Assembly: GCF_900104535.1 (NCBI RefSeq) | Contig: NZ_LT629710.1 | Span: 2,604,001-2,668,000 of the forward strand | DNA length: 64,000 bases | Reading direction: 5' to 3' | DNA from: Nakamurella panacisegetis | Lineage (GTDB): Bacteria > Actinomycetota > Actinomycetes > Mycobacteriales > Nakamurellaceae | Shown: positions 24 through 62,347 of the stretch, in pieces | Layout: each line of letters begins with the position of its first letter | How positions within the stretch are numbered: position 1 is the first letter of the stretch | Notes under the pieces: model-generated | The model's input: the letters and a program-made list of their open reading frames with translations, nothing else | What the model was told of the DNA's origin: nothing | The model's database searches: none | Made by a program: the position numbers and the translations under genes

Positions 24-968
24 GTGAGGGGTGCGCCGCCGACGATCGTCGAATTGCGGGCGGCCGACGGGGATTCGGTCAGTCTGGCCGTCAAGGGCTT
101 CTCCGCCGACGGGGCACTGCTGGCCACGGTGAGCGACGCCACGCTGCTCCGGGCCGCGGAGCGAGGGTATTTGCATTGCACGCCTGACCTTCTCGACGCA
201 GTGGCGGCGACGCCGGCGTCGGCCCGACCGACCAAACGGTCGACCGCACTGGTGTTGCTCGGTGGTCCCGGACTGGCGCCGCCCTCGAACCTCGGTACGG
301 CCGCGGCGGCCGACTGGCTCCGGGCCGATGACGTCCGGACCGATGCCGACCACTGGTTCCTGGGCACCTGGGAGCGGGACGGTCAAGTTCACCGCGCCGT
401 CTGGGACTACCTGCATCCGTCCGCTGGTCAGGCCGCCGCGGACTCCCTCTCGGCCGCACTGCAATTCGTTCTCGACCGTCAACCCGGCATGCCGATCGAC
501 GTGATCGAGGCCAACCGGCTGCTGATGTCCCTGACGGTCGACGCCGGCCGGGACCCGCTGGGTGAACTGGCCGGCGTGCTCGAGGCGCTGGGCGTCCGGT
601 CGGACCTGCTGCACGAGGACGGTCCGCTCGGATTCTCGATGGGTGGCGAGACGGTCGACTGGGACTGCCTGGCCGAGATCGTCGACCGCACCTGGCTCGT
701 CGTGTATGCGATGCTGCCGATCGTCATCGACGGGAGCCGGCTCGCCGACGCGCCCCGACTGGCCGGGCAGATCAACGCGCGCCTCCAGATCGGTTGTCTG
801 CTGGTCGAAGAGGAATCCGGTACCACCATGTACCGCGCGGCCATCGACCTGAGCGCGCCGAGCGGCCACACGTCGTCGATCCGCCGGCTCCTGGACCAGG
901 TGCACCGCGACGTCGTGGCCTGCCTGCAACTGCTCGACGACGAACCCGCGGTCGAGGCGGTTCGGTAG
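24..968 (+). CDS. YbjN-like domain protein, possibly 5'-truncated by the window
   Basis: A 314-residue protein of uncertain function. The second half (about residues 165-300) has the layout of YbjN-type domains, which share the fold of type III secretion chaperones: a helix, strands around FSMGGETVDWD, a hydrophobic strand (WLVVYAMLPIVI), the INARLQIGCLLVEE segment, and a final helix. The first 100 residues look like a separate alpha/beta region that I do not recognise. The reading frame is open to the left edge of the window, so the GTG at 24 may not be the true start. It runs in the same direction as the retron and ends 58 nt before the left arm of the retron RNA, so it could be a passive neighbour or an accessory gene. 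The family call is inference from strand pattern only. Confidence 0.45.
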   Translation: MRGAPPTIVELRAADGDSVSLAVKGFSADGALLATVSDATLLRAAERGYLHCTPDLLDAVAATPASARPTKRSTALVLLGGPGLAPPSNLGTAAAADWLRADDVRTDADHWFLGTWERDGQVHRAVWDYLHPSAGQAAADSLSAALQFVLDRQPGMPIDVIEANRLLMSLTVDAGRDPLGELAGVLEALGVRSDLLHEDGPLGFSMGGETVDWDCLAEIVDRTWLVVYAMLPIVIDGSRLADAPRLAGQINARLQIGCLLVEEESGTTMYRAAIDLSAPSGHTSSIRRLLDQVHRDVVACLQLLDDEPAVEAVR

Positions 969-1026: not shown

Positions 1027-1204
1027 GTCGACGACGGCAGGCGAGACTGCTGGTTCGCCTCCGAGTGGTCAGCGGGGCCGATCAGCTGCTCCGGGGATAC
1101 CCCGGGGCCGGTTGTGGTGGTATCGCAGCACGTCACAGGCATGATGCCGCGCTCCGCGCAGGGCAATGCCCGTCAGGCAGGACAGGTCGCCTGCCGTCGT
1201 CGAC
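1027..1204 (+). ncRNA. Retron msr-msd non-coding RNA
   Basis: Perfect 18-bp inverted repeats, GTCGACGACGGCAGGCGA at 1027-1044 and its exact reverse complement at 1187-1204, flank 142 nt directly upstream of a retron reverse transcriptase. This matches the a1/a2 arms that close a retron RNA. The base right after a1 is G1045, the position where the branching guanosine of other retrons (for example Ec86) lies. Inside, 1047-1052 can pair with 1070-1075, CCGGGG (1091-1096) pairs with CCCCGG (1100-1105) across a 3-nt loop (msr hairpins), and 1138-1152 folds with 1156-1170 into a long, slightly bulged hairpin that would be the msd core. The a2 arm ends 24 nt before the RT start codon. Pairing was found by eye; the exact msr/msd border is not determined. 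Confidence 0.8.
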
Positions 1205-1228
1205 GTCCGGGGGTGAGGGGGAGACTGG

Positions 1229-2560
1229 ATGCGCGCACGGGATCGCCTGGCGGCCGCACTGGCCGACGGGATGCTGGCGGGGGACTGGGCCGGGGCGCCT
1301 ATGCGGGCCCAGGGCGCTCTGGTGCTGGGGGAGCGGCACGCCTGGATCCGCCGCCTCGTCCGAGAGGTGCTCGAGTTCTATCCGGAGCCTCCGGCGGACC
1401 GGCCGCGTGAGTTGGCCCGTCTCATCGGACGGACCCGGACGATGGAGGAGCTCGAGCGCCGCGCCCGCCGCCGGCGCCGACGGTTGCCGATTCCGCAGCA
1501 CCGGGTGACCACCCCGACCACCACCGTGCGGCGGCCCTTCCCGGTCGTCAGCATCAACGACGCCACAGCCCTCGCCGAGTGTCTCGGCCTGTCGGTTCCC
1601 GACCTTCTGTGGTTTGCCGACACCAAAGGTCTGCAGCGGCGGGCCGCGTCCGTTGGCCTGCACCACTACCGCTCGACCTGGGTCGGCACCCGGTCCGGAA
1701 GTCGGCTGCTCGAAGCTCCGCGGCCACGCCTGAAGGAGGTGCAGCGCCAGATTCTGCAGCAGTTGCTGGCGCCGATCCCGGTCCACGAAGCTGCTCACGG
1801 ATTTGTCGCCGGGCGCAGCGCGGTGACCGGAGCCCGTCCGCACGTCGATGCGGCCACCGTTATCAGCCTGGATCTCGAGTCGTTCTTCTCGTCGGTGAGC
1901 GGCCGGCGGATCTACGGGCTCTTCCGCATGGCCGGGTTCCCGGAACCGGTCGCGCACCTGCTCACCGGTCTGTGCACCCAGGCGACCCCGGTGGATGTCC
2001 TGCGCCGCATGCCGTCGGGCCACCCGGCGGCGTTCCGGCTGCGCCGCAAACTCGCGGAGCCGCACCTGCCTCAGGGGGCGCCGACCTCTCCCCACCTGGC
2101 CAACCTGGCCGCCTTCGGACTGGACCGTCGGCTGGCCGCCTATGCGAGCCGGATCGGTGCCAGGTACACCCGGTACGCCGACGACCTGACGTTCTCCGGA
2201 CCGGATCTGCGCCGCCGCAGCCGTGGGGTGGTCGCGGCGGTGGCGCGGATCGTCGCGGAGGAGGGCTTTGCGCTGAACACCACGAAGACCAGGGTCCGAG
2301 GTCAGGACGACCGCCAGACGGTGACCGGCGTTGTGGTGAATCGACACCCGACCGTTTCCCGAGCGGAGTACGACACCCTCCGGGCGATACTGCACAATTG
2401 TGTCCGCTTCGGTCCCGAATCGCAGAATCGCTTGCTGCACACCGACTTCCGTAGCCATCTCCGAGGGCGGGTGGCCTGGGTGGCCGCGCTGGACCCAGAA
2501 CGCGGTCGTCGGCTCCTGGCCACCTACAGTCAGATCGACTTCAGCCCGTCCGGAACATGA
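1229..2560 (+). CDS. Retron-type reverse transcriptase
   Basis: 443 residues, about 120 longer than a minimal retron RT such as Ec86. The fingers/palm contain VISLDLESFF (catalytic D215), LPQGAPTSPHLANL (280-293) and YTRYADDLTFS with catalytic D318 and D319. The retron-specific VTG motif of region Y is present (365-367, QTVTGVVVN). The NAxxH motif of region X reads GARPH (201-205), so Ala and His are kept but Asn is Gly. The first 100 or so residues form an extra N-terminal domain with a very basic stretch (RRARRRRRR near 78-85); a longer N-terminus is also known from the myxobacterial Mx162 RT. The start is ATG behind a purine-rich GGGGAG. It would prime from G1045 of the upstream RNA and make a branched RNA-DNA hybrid. 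No maturase domain is present, which argues against a group II intron. Confidence 0.9.
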   Translation: MRARDRLAAALADGMLAGDWAGAPMRAQGALVLGERHAWIRRLVREVLEFYPEPPADRPRELARLIGRTRTMEELERRARRRRRRLPIPQHRVTTPTTTVRRPFPVVSINDATALAECLGLSVPDLLWFADTKGLQRRAASVGLHHYRSTWVGTRSGSRLLEAPRPRLKEVQRQILQQLLAPIPVHEAAHGFVAGRSAVTGARPHVDAATVISLDLESFFSSVSGRRIYGLFRMAGFPEPVAHLLTGLCTQATPVDVLRRMPSGHPAAFRLRRKLAEPHLPQGAPTSPHLANLAAFGLDRRLAAYASRIGARYTRYADDLTFSGPDLRRRSRGVVAAVARIVAEEGFALNTTKTRVRGQDDRQTVTGVVVNRHPTVSRAEYDTLRAILHNCVRFGPESQNRLLHTDFRSHLRGRVAWVAALDPERGRRLLATYSQIDFSPSGT

Positions 2561-2572
2561 GATGAGTGCCCC

Positions 2573-4156
2573 ATGGCCACGTTGCTCTTGGTTGTCGCCC
2601 TGACCGTCATCACCGTCGTCCTGGTCGGTGTCGGCCGTCGGGTCCGTCTGCCCTGGCCGGCCCTGATGGTGGTGGTGTCGGCCGGTGTGGCCTTCATCCC
2701 GGCGGTGTCGCGGATAGCGATCGATCCCGAGTTGATCCTGCCGTTGTTCCTGCCGCCCTTGCTGTTCGCCACCGCTCAGCGCACGTCCCTCTCGCTGTTC
2801 CGGGCGCGATGGCGATCGATCTTGGGTCTGGCCATCGCGTTGGTCGCGGTCACCATCACGGCGGTCGCCGCGACGGCGGTCGCATTGGTTCCGGGTATCA
2901 CGCTGACGGCCGCCATCGCCCTCGGAGCGGCGGTGGCTCCGCCCGATCCGGTGGCCGTCGACGCCGTCGCCGGGCCACTGCGGATACCGCGCCGGCTGGT
3001 GGGGGTGCTGCAGACCGAGGGTCTGTTCAATGACGCTACCTCGCTGGTGGTGTTCCAGACCGCCCTGGCCGCCCTGATGACCAGCCGCGGCGGCGGTCTC
3101 AACGGATCGGTGGCGTGGCGATTCGTCTACGGTGTGGTGGCGGCGGCGGTCATCGGGTGGGTCACCGCCTGGTTGGTCCGCCGCCTGACCGACCGGATCC
3201 AGGACGTGGCCGGGCGGAATGCCCTGACCCTCATCCTCCCGTTCGCCGTGTACCTGGCGGCCGACGAGGCCCGTGCGTCCGGGGTCATCGCGGTGGTCGT
3301 GGCTGCCCTTGCCCTCGGAAGCAGTCAGCAGGCGGACGCCATCGAGGATCGGCTGACCGGTGAGGCGTTCTGGAGTGTGGTCGAGCTGGTCGTCACCGGC
3401 GTGGCCTTCGGTCTGATCGGGGTCGAGCTGCGATCGGTGATCAGGGAGGCGGGCCGGCAGCTACCGCACATGCTCGGGCACGCGGCGCTCGTGTGCGGCG
3501 TGGTGGTTGCGGTGCGGGCGGTCTGGTTGACGGTGGCGCTCCAGACGATCGCCCGGTCCGAGGATCCGGATCGGTCCCCCCGCAACCTTCGTGAGGTGAT
3601 GATCCTGACCTGGTGCGGGATGCGGGGGCTGGCCACCCTGGCCCTCGCGCTGGCCCTTCCGGCCACCGTCTTCGAGGGCGCGGTGTTTCCCGCGCGCACC
3701 GAGATCGTGGTGATCGCATGCTCGGTCCTGGTGGTGACCCTGTTGATTCCGGCCTTCACCCTCCCGGCGTTGGTCAAGGCGCTGGGGATCGCCGACGACG
3801 CCGACGCCGAGGATGCGGCCGAGCGGCCGATCGCCGACCGGGCCCGGGCTGCGGTGATGAATGCGTTGCAGGACAACGATCTTCCTCCCGGCACATCGGA
3901 CCGGGTGAAGGAGTTCGTCCGCCTCGGGACGGCCTTGATGACTGCCCGGGTGGCCGGTGACGACGAGTTCGACCGGTATCGCGAGGTGTACGCCGAGGTG
4001 CAGGAGCAACGTCGACTGATGGTGGACCTGGAAGGACGGGCGCTGTCGGCGGCGCGGGCGGAGGTGCTCAAGGTGCGGGGGGAGCCGGGCGTCGACCCGG
4101 ACGCCGCGGACCGCGTACTGCGCCGCCTGGACGTCAAGAGCCTTCGGCTCGGTTAG
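2573..4156 (+). CDS. Na+/H+ antiporter, CPA1 (NhaP-like) family
   Basis: 527-residue inner-membrane protein with about 11-12 hydrophobic segments in the first 400 residues and a soluble, charged C-terminal tail of about 125 residues. CPA1 hallmarks are PPDPVAVDA (123-131) and EGLFNDATSLV (149-159) with the paired N153-D154 expected in the ion path. It should exchange protons for Na+ or K+ to control pH and salt. The ATG lies 12 nt after the RT stop, so it may be co-transcribed with the retron. The end overlaps the converging marR gene by 4 nt. Whether it is functionally tied to the retron is open; antiporters of this kind are common housekeeping genes. Confidence 0.88.
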   Translation: MATLLLVVALTVITVVLVGVGRRVRLPWPALMVVVSAGVAFIPAVSRIAIDPELILPLFLPPLLFATAQRTSLSLFRARWRSILGLAIALVAVTITAVAATAVALVPGITLTAAIALGAAVAPPDPVAVDAVAGPLRIPRRLVGVLQTEGLFNDATSLVVFQTALAALMTSRGGGLNGSVAWRFVYGVVAAAVIGWVTAWLVRRLTDRIQDVAGRNALTLILPFAVYLAADEARASGVIAVVVAALALGSSQQADAIEDRLTGEAFWSVVELVVTGVAFGLIGVELRSVIREAGRQLPHMLGHAALVCGVVVAVRAVWLTVALQTIARSEDPDRSPRNLREVMILTWCGMRGLATLALALALPATVFEGAVFPARTEIVVIACSVLVVTLLIPAFTLPALVKALGIADDADAEDAAERPIADRARAAVMNALQDNDLPPGTSDRVKEFVRLGTALMTARVAGDDEFDRYREVYAEVQEQRRLMVDLEGRALSAARAEVLKVRGEPGVDPDAADRVLRRLDVKSLRLG

Positions 4157-41709: not shown

Positions 41710-41779
41710 CAAAGATCCTCAGGAATCCTTGGACTCCCGGCCGAGCCGGGTGGTCCGCGCTTGCCTGATGCACCTCGCA

Positions 41780-41866
41780 CCAAGCCAGGTCTTCATCCGG
41801 GGCACCCCACCGCGGTAGGAGGGTTGCCGGCCAGCAAGCCGGAGCTATCCGCTGGCACTCATGACC
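41780..41866 (-). promoter_or_regulatory. SAM-IV riboswitch
   Basis: Minus-strand sequence matches the SAM-IV consensus: GGTCATGAGTGCCAGCG at the 5' side, CCGGCTTGCTGGCCGGCAAC (SAM-binding arm), CCCTCC, GCGGTGGGGTGCCCCGG, and the closing ATGAAGACC. It lies about 70 nt before the aminotransferase start and should repress it when S-adenosylmethionine is high. Borders are approximate; the downstream pseudoknot may extend towards 41750. Confidence 0.88.
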
Positions 41867-61849: not shown

Positions 61850-61940
61850 GAGTAGACCTTCACAAGGGGGATGGGATGGGTTCGGGCTTGTCAGGAGGCG
61901 GCCGGCGGGCCGACTCGCGCTTGCGACCGCCGATCGGCGA

Positions 61941-62027
61941 TCACCAGGTCGTCACCTGGAGCACCCCGCCGCGAAGGAGGGTTGCCGGCCAGCAAGCCAG
62001 GGCTGCACGCTGACACTCATTACCTGC
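61941..62027 (-). promoter_or_regulatory. SAM-IV riboswitch of the monooxygenase operon
   Basis: Minus strand: AGGTAATGAGTGTCAGCG, CTGGCTTGCTGGCCGGCAAC, CCCTCC, GCGGCGGGGTGCTCCAGG, closing with TGACGACCT. A -10-like TATGTT (62038-62033) is 6 nt upstream, so transcription would start at the aptamer. About 90 nt separate it from the first gene. Confidence 0.87.
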
Positions 62028-62178: not shown

Positions 62179-62275
62179 GGTCATGAGATTCAGCGACAAG
62201 CTCCGGCTCGCTGGGCGGCAACCCTCGGTGCACATCAAGTGCCGAACACGGTGGGGTGCTCCGGATGACGACCAG
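62179..62275 (+). promoter_or_regulatory. SAM-IV riboswitch of the ABC importer operon, with promoter
   Basis: GGTCATGAGATTCAGCG, CCGGCTCGCTGGGCGGCAAC, CCCTCGG, then ACGGTGGGGTGCTCCGG and ATGACGACC. The middle insertion (CATCAAGTGCCGAA) is longer than in the other two copies. A promoter, TTGACC (62142-62147) and TAGCTT (62165-62170) with a 17-nt spacer, would start transcription near 62177, at the aptamer's first base. Confidence 0.85.
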
Positions 62276-62347
62276 GCGGTGCTCGACCCCGAGCCCCGCA
62301 AGCGTGGGGCCACTGCTGTGGCCGGACGAACGGACGAGACGATCAAC

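What the first reader, a model, noticed from the sequence alone, without database searches (positions are those of the whole stretch)
1027..2560. A complete-looking retron with a perfect 18-bp a1/a2 repeat
Seen: perfect 18-bp inverted repeats at 1027-1044 and 1187-1204 bracket a structured 142-nt segment, with a retron RT starting 24 nt later. G1045 is exactly where the branching guanosine should be, and a long hairpin at 1138-1170 fits the msd. Known: retrons make branched msDNA and many act as anti-phage systems. Inference: this is a working retron of an actinobacterium, from a lineage with few studied examples.
Basis: partly seen in the sequence, partly recalled or inferred. Interest (0 to 1): 0.88.

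Follow-up and report, generated by a model that had tools for sequence, protein, structure and literature searches.

The report
Effector-less actinobacterial retron, family-wide RNA
This is a genuine retron - a reverse transcriptase gene preceded by the structured RNA it is expected to turn into a small DNA-RNA hybrid - from a poorly studied lineage that mostly follows its hosts' family tree and shows no obvious toxic partner gene, so what it does is an open question.

The parts
1027..1044 (+). a1 arm of the msr-msd RNA (GTCGACGACGGCAGGCGA)
   Evidence: 18/18 complementary to 1187-1204; all 17 modelled pairs of this helix have two-sided changes in relatives, 94.9% of cells paired
1045..1045 (+). 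predicted branching guanosine (2'-5' priming site)
   Evidence: directly 3' of a1; G there in 68 of 69 aligned hits; chemistry inferred from known retrons (PMC6868368, passages)
1045..1070 (+). first msr stem-loop (variable in relatives)
   Evidence: minimum-energy fold of 1020-1210; not part of the covariance consensus, so weaker than the other helices
1089..1107 (+). msr stem-loop CTCCGGGG-ATA-CCCCGGGG, the most conserved element of the family
   Evidence: GGGG-N3-CCCC core in 68 of 69 aligned hits, the exception being the false hit in L012; outer pairs vary
1136..1173 (+). msd hairpin (core 1138-1170, tip GCGC-TCC-GCGC 1149-1159); ends approximate
   Evidence: consensus helices; hairpin also in the DNA fold of the opposite strand
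1108..1186 (-). predicted reverse-transcribed DNA, about 60-80 nt, starting opposite G1186
   Evidence: inference from retron biochemistry; G directly 5' of a2 in 68 of 69 aligned hits, the exception being the false hit in L012; the other end cannot be determined here
1187..1204 (+). a2 arm
1229..2560 (+). retron reverse transcriptase, 443 aa
1229..1474 (+). N-terminal five-helix domain of the RT (residues 1-82)
   Evidence: model helices 3-17, 22-33, 38-50, 59-68, 70-81 at mean pLDDT 95.4; no Pfam family for the window's copy, no PDB match at E<=0.001

Best explanation
A retron of an actinobacterium (probably Nakamurella; recalled from a genome length, no call names it). One transcript carries the msr-msd RNA and the RT message. 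The a1 and a2 arms pair; the RT binds the RNA (probably through the conserved GGGG-N3-CCCC stem-loop), primes from the 2'-OH of G1045 and copies leftwards from G1186 through the hairpin at about 1136-1173, giving a branched RNA-DNA hybrid with a 60-80 nt hairpin DNA. The RNA and the RT are shown by sequence and covariation; transcript, RT contact, priming, product and its length are inferred. No effector gene was found to recur beside it, so the msDNA-RT complex acts either on its own, with its N-terminal helical domain as platform, or with a partner encoded elsewhere. The confidence is for the retron identity and msDNA mechanism, not for a biological role.
For: RNA: perfect a1/a2 beyond chance. 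Model R1, built from ten genus loci, the window among them, hits 68 of 100 loci not used to build it on the RT strand, ending between 29 nt after and 685 nt before the first aligned RT codon, and 32 of 57 further sources (the window scores 130.1 bits there by construction). Pair counts on the 69 matches: 91.6% of cells paired, 35 of 41 pairs with two-sided changes, score 0.660 versus 0.187 shuffled and at most 0.112 slid. RNA and RT are in the same 11 of 17 genus genomes, one RNA each, neither found in the other 6. Protein: PADLOC RT_other 585 and RT_outgroup 551 bits; PDB sequence and fold matches are retron RTs first; VTG and YADD present. Selection: codon-position differences to the nearest relative 0.257/0.198/0.501.
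Against: No msDNA has been seen. The single-sequence RNA fold does not show the msd hairpin and pairs G1045. 32 of the 100 loci give no hit: 14 of the XIII-type sister branch, 2 cut by contig ends, 6 Planctomycetota, 10 others (9 Burkholderiales, 1 Verrucomicrobiia) (grouping). The six planctomycete loci do have a long a1/a2 with G directly after it and GGGG-N3-CCCC (by eye). The region-X motif is GARPH, not NAXXH. Alignment A2 was fitted to the model, which favours its structure. In one genus genome (G009) the RNA lies 3.9 kb from the RT.
Confidence: 0.93

Rival explanations
1. It is a tripartite anti-phage retron whose effector is present but hidden: the fused N-terminal helical domain, an unlinked gene, or in this strain the co-directional Na+/H+ antiporter that starts 12 nt after the RT stop.
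For: Retrons typically comprise a toxic effector (PMC12548924, abstract as listed). The N-terminal domain is found in 77 of 166 RTs of my set at E<=1 (56 at E<=1e-10), in several phyla (37 of the set were in the profile). The antiporter starts at 2573, just after 2560, same strand.
Against: The N-terminal domain is found in 0 of 15 Amycolatopsis RTs (most of these start near query residue 98-108), its alignment has only A12 invariant and L16, W20 nearly so, and it has no convincing fold match. The antiporter had no match near the RT in the 10 other genus loci; a homologue lies near the RT in two beta-proteobacterial loci on the other strand. No gene family recurs next to the RT across phyla.
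Confidence: 0.42
2. It is an effector-less retron kept for a chromosomal, non-defence role (for example regulation or DNA stress), comparable to the vertically inherited myxobacterial retrons.
For: No neighbour recurring across phyla. RT tree follows host groups: 23 label changes with a least possible of 21, shuffled mean 94.6. No close phage relative: 27 phage records match, best identity among the 20 listed 33.2%; of 80 viral-contig loci kept from 233 relatives the best E-value has 36% identity and the highest identity is 40% over part of the RT, and R1 hits 0 of these 80. Vertical inheritance of myxobacterial retrons is reported (PMC6868368, passages).
Against: Patchy: 11 of 17 genus genomes and 91 of 397 order genomes, with different neighbours within the genus. 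The genus RTs fall in three places of the tree and Rhodococcus rhodnii sits among Kibdelosporangium. Relatives as close as those of other host families lie on plasmid records (47-49% identity in Burkholderia and a 250-kb Tsukamurella plasmid, 44% in Dietzia). Defence genes can also be inherited vertically for a time.
Confidence: 0.32
3. A relic: RNA and RT no longer make msDNA in this strain.
For: Three order genomes have the RT match in two pieces (G143, G279, G291; assembly errors not excluded), and G009 has the RNA parted from the RT.
Against: In the window the a1/a2 helix is perfect, the RT open and its YADD intact, with third-position-biased change to relatives.
Confidence: 0.05
4. A non-retron reverse transcriptase (DRT or group II-like) next to a chance or terminator-like inverted repeat.
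For: The RT fold is shared with group II and DRT enzymes.
Against: Retron RTs rank above all others by sequence and fold; the RNA is conserved, covaries and co-occurs with the RT; 0 of 60 shuffles give such a repeat.
Confidence: 0.02

Closest known systems
PADLOC RT_other (PDLC02949) / RT_outgroup (PDLC03740) retron RTs
   Same: The RT matches over nearly its whole length, N-terminal domain included: 585 and 551 bits.
   Different: These are profiles only; the call gave no effector, RNA or function for them. The window RNA matches no Rfam family.
PADLOC RT_XIII retrons, with the myxobacterial RTs of about 486-codon open frames found here (possibly Mx162-like; a guess)
   Same: Sister branch in the tree; long a1/a2 upstream; extended N-terminus.
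   Different: Window RT scores 319 bits there against 585 for RT_other. XIII-type loci mostly have a longer inter-arm gap (187-207 nt; L070 differs), a different N-terminus (0 hits of the N-terminal profile), are not hit by R1, and 13 of them share an upstream gene of 778-884 aa.
Retron Ec86 (Eco1) and Ec67 (Eco2)
   Different: About 22-29% identity. Ec86 has an effector (PDB title) and Ec67 a fused Toprim (PMC12405507, abstract as listed); here neither is found.
Rfam msr (RF00170, recalled)
   Same: Same kind of RNA.
   Different: No match to the window segment even at E<=10.

Membership tests
Retron (classical: RT + msr-msd) | RT of the retron lineage | tested here: met
Retron (classical: RT + msr-msd) | VTG motif in region Y (PMC4244168 section 13, read) | tested here: met
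   V365-T366-G367
Retron (classical: RT + msr-msd) | NAXXH motif in region X (identified in 59% of retron-like RTs, PMC4244168 section 13) | tested here: inconclusive
   GARPH at 201-205: A and H kept, N not; H205 invariant in 65 RTs
Retron (classical: RT + msr-msd) | a1/a2 inverted repeat bracketing a structured RNA upstream of the RT, conserved in relatives | tested here: met
Retron (classical: RT + msr-msd) | Guanosine directly 3' of a1 | tested here: met
   G1045; 68 of 69 aligned hits
Retron (classical: RT + msr-msd) | Branched msDNA product | not testable with these tools
   needs RT-DNA extraction
Tripartite anti-phage retron (RT + RNA + effector) | Effector gene adjacent or fused, recurring in relatives | tested here: inconclusive
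   No adjacent gene recurs across phyla; local ones do, and the N-terminal domain of unknown function remains possible
Tripartite anti-phage retron (RT + RNA + effector) | Phage defence | not testable with these tools
   no phenotype data
PADLOC type XIII retron | Best RT profile is RT_XIII | tested here: not met
   319 bits versus 585 for RT_other; the tree separates my XIII rows with support 100
PADLOC RT_other / RT_outgroup lineage | Best RT profile, near full length | tested here: met
   residues 3-440 on profile positions 67-472 of 481

The most novel reading that the evidence does not exclude
The lineage is a retron without any toxic effector: RNA and RT alone, with an unrecognised five-helix RT domain, inherited mostly along host lines in actinobacteria, myxobacteria and proteobacteria, whose msDNA complex does a chromosomal job other than abortive phage defence.
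Probability: 0.27. Interest if true: 0.72.

Novelty: new member of a known kind. Interest (0 to 1): 0.45.

Why it matters
Retrons are now mostly understood as toxin-guarding phage defences, from a few well-studied types. A lineage with a strongly selected RNA and RT, no effector found beside it, and largely host-congruent inheritance is a clean place to ask what msDNA does by itself. The RNA model and boundaries given here (a1, branching G, near-universal GGGG-N3-CCCC loop, msd hairpin) make that testable and also point to a high-GC retron for DNA production in actinobacteria.

Tried and rejected
Pentapeptide-repeat partner: in 12 Pseudonocardiaceae loci a pentapeptide-repeat gene begins within -7 to +68 nt of the RT stop, and in 2 more at +469/+481. 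Not accepted as a partner: relatives are in 182 of 397 order genomes against 91 of 397 with the RT; in the window's own genome it lies at 2,931,059, away from the retron; genomes G066, G167 and G277 carry close copies (92-98%) without an RT match at E<=1e-30. A dnaE2-like polymerase upstream in 16 loci (name recalled from its sequence) looks like shared chromosomal position.

Na+/H+ antiporter as effector: no match near the RT in the 10 other genus loci.

Operon test: by my home-made gene caller 66 of 101 next downstream genes lie on the opposite strand and 14 of 105 loci have a co-directional gene within 60 nt. I give this little weight: the caller takes some antisense frames for genes and missed the pentapeptide genes of at least six of these loci, so the true number is at least 20 of 105.

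Rfam: no retron match at the gathering score, only two implausible matches at E<=10. Mestre et al. 2020, recalled as the main classification of retron types, is not held, so I could not check whether this RNA or lineage is described there. Paper searches; 'retrons' with 'Nakamurella' gave 0 papers.

Full report
OBSERVATION. In the whole window the next longest perfect repeat with a 60-250 nt gap is 13 nt, and 0 of 60 dinucleotide shuffles reached 18 (longest 16). The segment folds better than all 200 shuffles (z -4.19). The RT ORF is 1229-2560, 443 aa, starting 24 nt after a2.

RELATIVES. The one scan of genome contigs kept the best 80 of 103 relatives. Ten of 16 other genomes of the genus carry a relative, as do 91 of 397 genomes of the order at E<=1e-30, in 27 of 85 genera, and 48 of 144 of a myxobacterial order at E<=1e-20 (some tested there are XIII-type). 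The genus is probably Nakamurella: the length of G010 (6,060,298) is the one I recall for N. multipartita; no call names it.

THE RNA. Ten of the 11 genus loci with an RT, all but G009, were aligned from a1 to a2. RNAalifold predicts 41 pairs, 23 with two-sided changes. The covariance model R1 from these ten was run on 100 loci not used to build it (all 80 and the 20, of 40 fetched): 69 matches at E<=0.1, of which 68 lie on the RT strand directly 5' of the RT and one (L012, antisense) is false. Of the 32 loci without a match, 14 are XIII-type, 2 are cut at the contig end, 6 are Planctomycetota, 9 Burkholderiales and 1 Verrucomicrobiia. On 57 further sources 32 had a match (34 matches), the window among them by construction; I did not check by script where those lie. 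Pair counting on the 69 matches: 91.6% paired, 35 of 41 pairs with two-sided changes, score 0.660 against 0.187 (shuffled) and at most 0.112 (slid); the alignment was fitted to the structure, so this leans towards it. The base after a1 is G in 68 of 69 rows and the base before a2 is G in 68 of 69; the exceptions are L007 and the false hit in L012, respectively. The core GGGG-N3-CCCC is in 68 of 69, all but the false hit. Known branching guanosines lie in TAGC, CAGA, CAGC, GAGC or ACGC contexts (PMC6868368, passages); here it is GAGA.

CO-OCCURRENCE. A whole-genome search with R1 (150 candidates scored per genome) finds the RNA once in each of 11 of 17 genus genomes, and these are exactly the 11 with the RT. 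In G009 the RNA is 3.9 kb from the RT, with small genes and an ABC-transporter-like gene (by eye) between.

NO EFFECTOR FOUND. Gene calls were made by a simple script, not a trained gene finder, and it is known to have missed some genes (see Tried and rejected). In the genus no gene is shared next to the RT in all 11 loci; a marR gene lies downstream in G000, G013 and G001. Over 105 non-XIII loci no family recurs next to the RT across phyla. Local ones exist: a pentapeptide-repeat gene in Pseudonocardiaceae and a gene of about 416-447 aa in Variovorax. XIII-type loci, by contrast, share an upstream gene of 778-884 aa in 13 loci. PADLOC found nothing in the window's neighbours 24-965 and 2573-4153. 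That some retrons lack an obvious effector is known (PMC8867640, passages).

INHERITANCE. In a quick maximum-likelihood tree of 129 RTs (SH-aLRT only), my XIII rows separate with support 100, and 22 labels of mine, mostly host groups, need 23 changes with a least possible of 21; shuffled mean 94.6. Exceptions: the genus falls in three places, and Rhodococcus rhodnii lies among Kibdelosporangium. Plasmid records hold relatives at 47-49% identity in Burkholderia and Tsukamurella and 44% in Dietzia (134 records with any match); the Tsukamurella and one Burkholderia plasmid are typed non-mobilizable. Among phage records 27 match, best identity of the 20 listed 33.2%. Of 80 viral-contig loci kept from 233, the best E-value has 36% identity and the highest identity is 40% over residues 154-389; R1 finds the RNA in 0 of these 80. 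Codon-position differences to the nearest relative are 0.257, 0.198 and 0.501, as expected for a protein under purifying selection.

MECHANISM. Shown: a conserved, covarying RNA tied to a retron RT. Inferred: priming at G1045, copying from G1186 leftwards through the hairpin at about 1136-1173, a branched product of 60-80 nt. Unknown: product in vivo, partner, biological role. Both a hidden effector and a non-defence role remain open.

VERDICT. A real retron, new as a locus, in a lineage already covered by PADLOC profiles; the RNA matches no Rfam family. Whether its RNA was described before could not be checked, because the classification paper I recall is not held.

Noticed in passing
window 61912-62024 (-), 62179-62310 (+), 41752-41866 (-): Three SAM-IV riboswitches in the window, two of them back to back and divergent.
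   Followed up: no
window 2573-4156: A CPA1-type Na+/H+ antiporter starts 12 nt after the RT stop on the same strand; no match near the RT in the 10 other genus loci.
   Followed up: partly
window 24-968: A 314-aa protein directly upstream of the retron has no Pfam, NCBIfam or PADLOC match.
   Followed up: no
L099 (G009): The retron RNA and its RT are 3.9 kb apart, with small genes that look like a toxin-antitoxin pair and an ABC transporter (both by eye) in between.
   Followed up: partly
L004, L007, L008, L010, L012, L014, L017, L021, L025, L026, L032, L148: A pentapeptide-repeat protein gene begins within -7 to +68 nt of the RT stop in these Pseudonocardiaceae loci, and a dnaE2-like gene often lies upstream; probably chromosomal position, since the pentapeptide gene is common without the retron.
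   Followed up: yes
L036, L038, L040, L049, L050, L054, L056, L068: In Variovorax a gene of about 416-447 aa follows the RT closely (7 of these loci, L038); the L036 copy has no Pfam match. It could be a lineage-specific partner.
   Followed up: partly
L063, L065, L067, L069, L070, L072, L075-L081: XIII-type loci share an upstream gene of 778-884 aa, and 7 loci share another of 545-745 aa.
   Followed up: no
L284 (Tsukamurella plasmid record): A relative of the RT is plasmid-borne, followed 28 nt later by a HAD hydrolase-like gene on the same strand.
   Followed up: no
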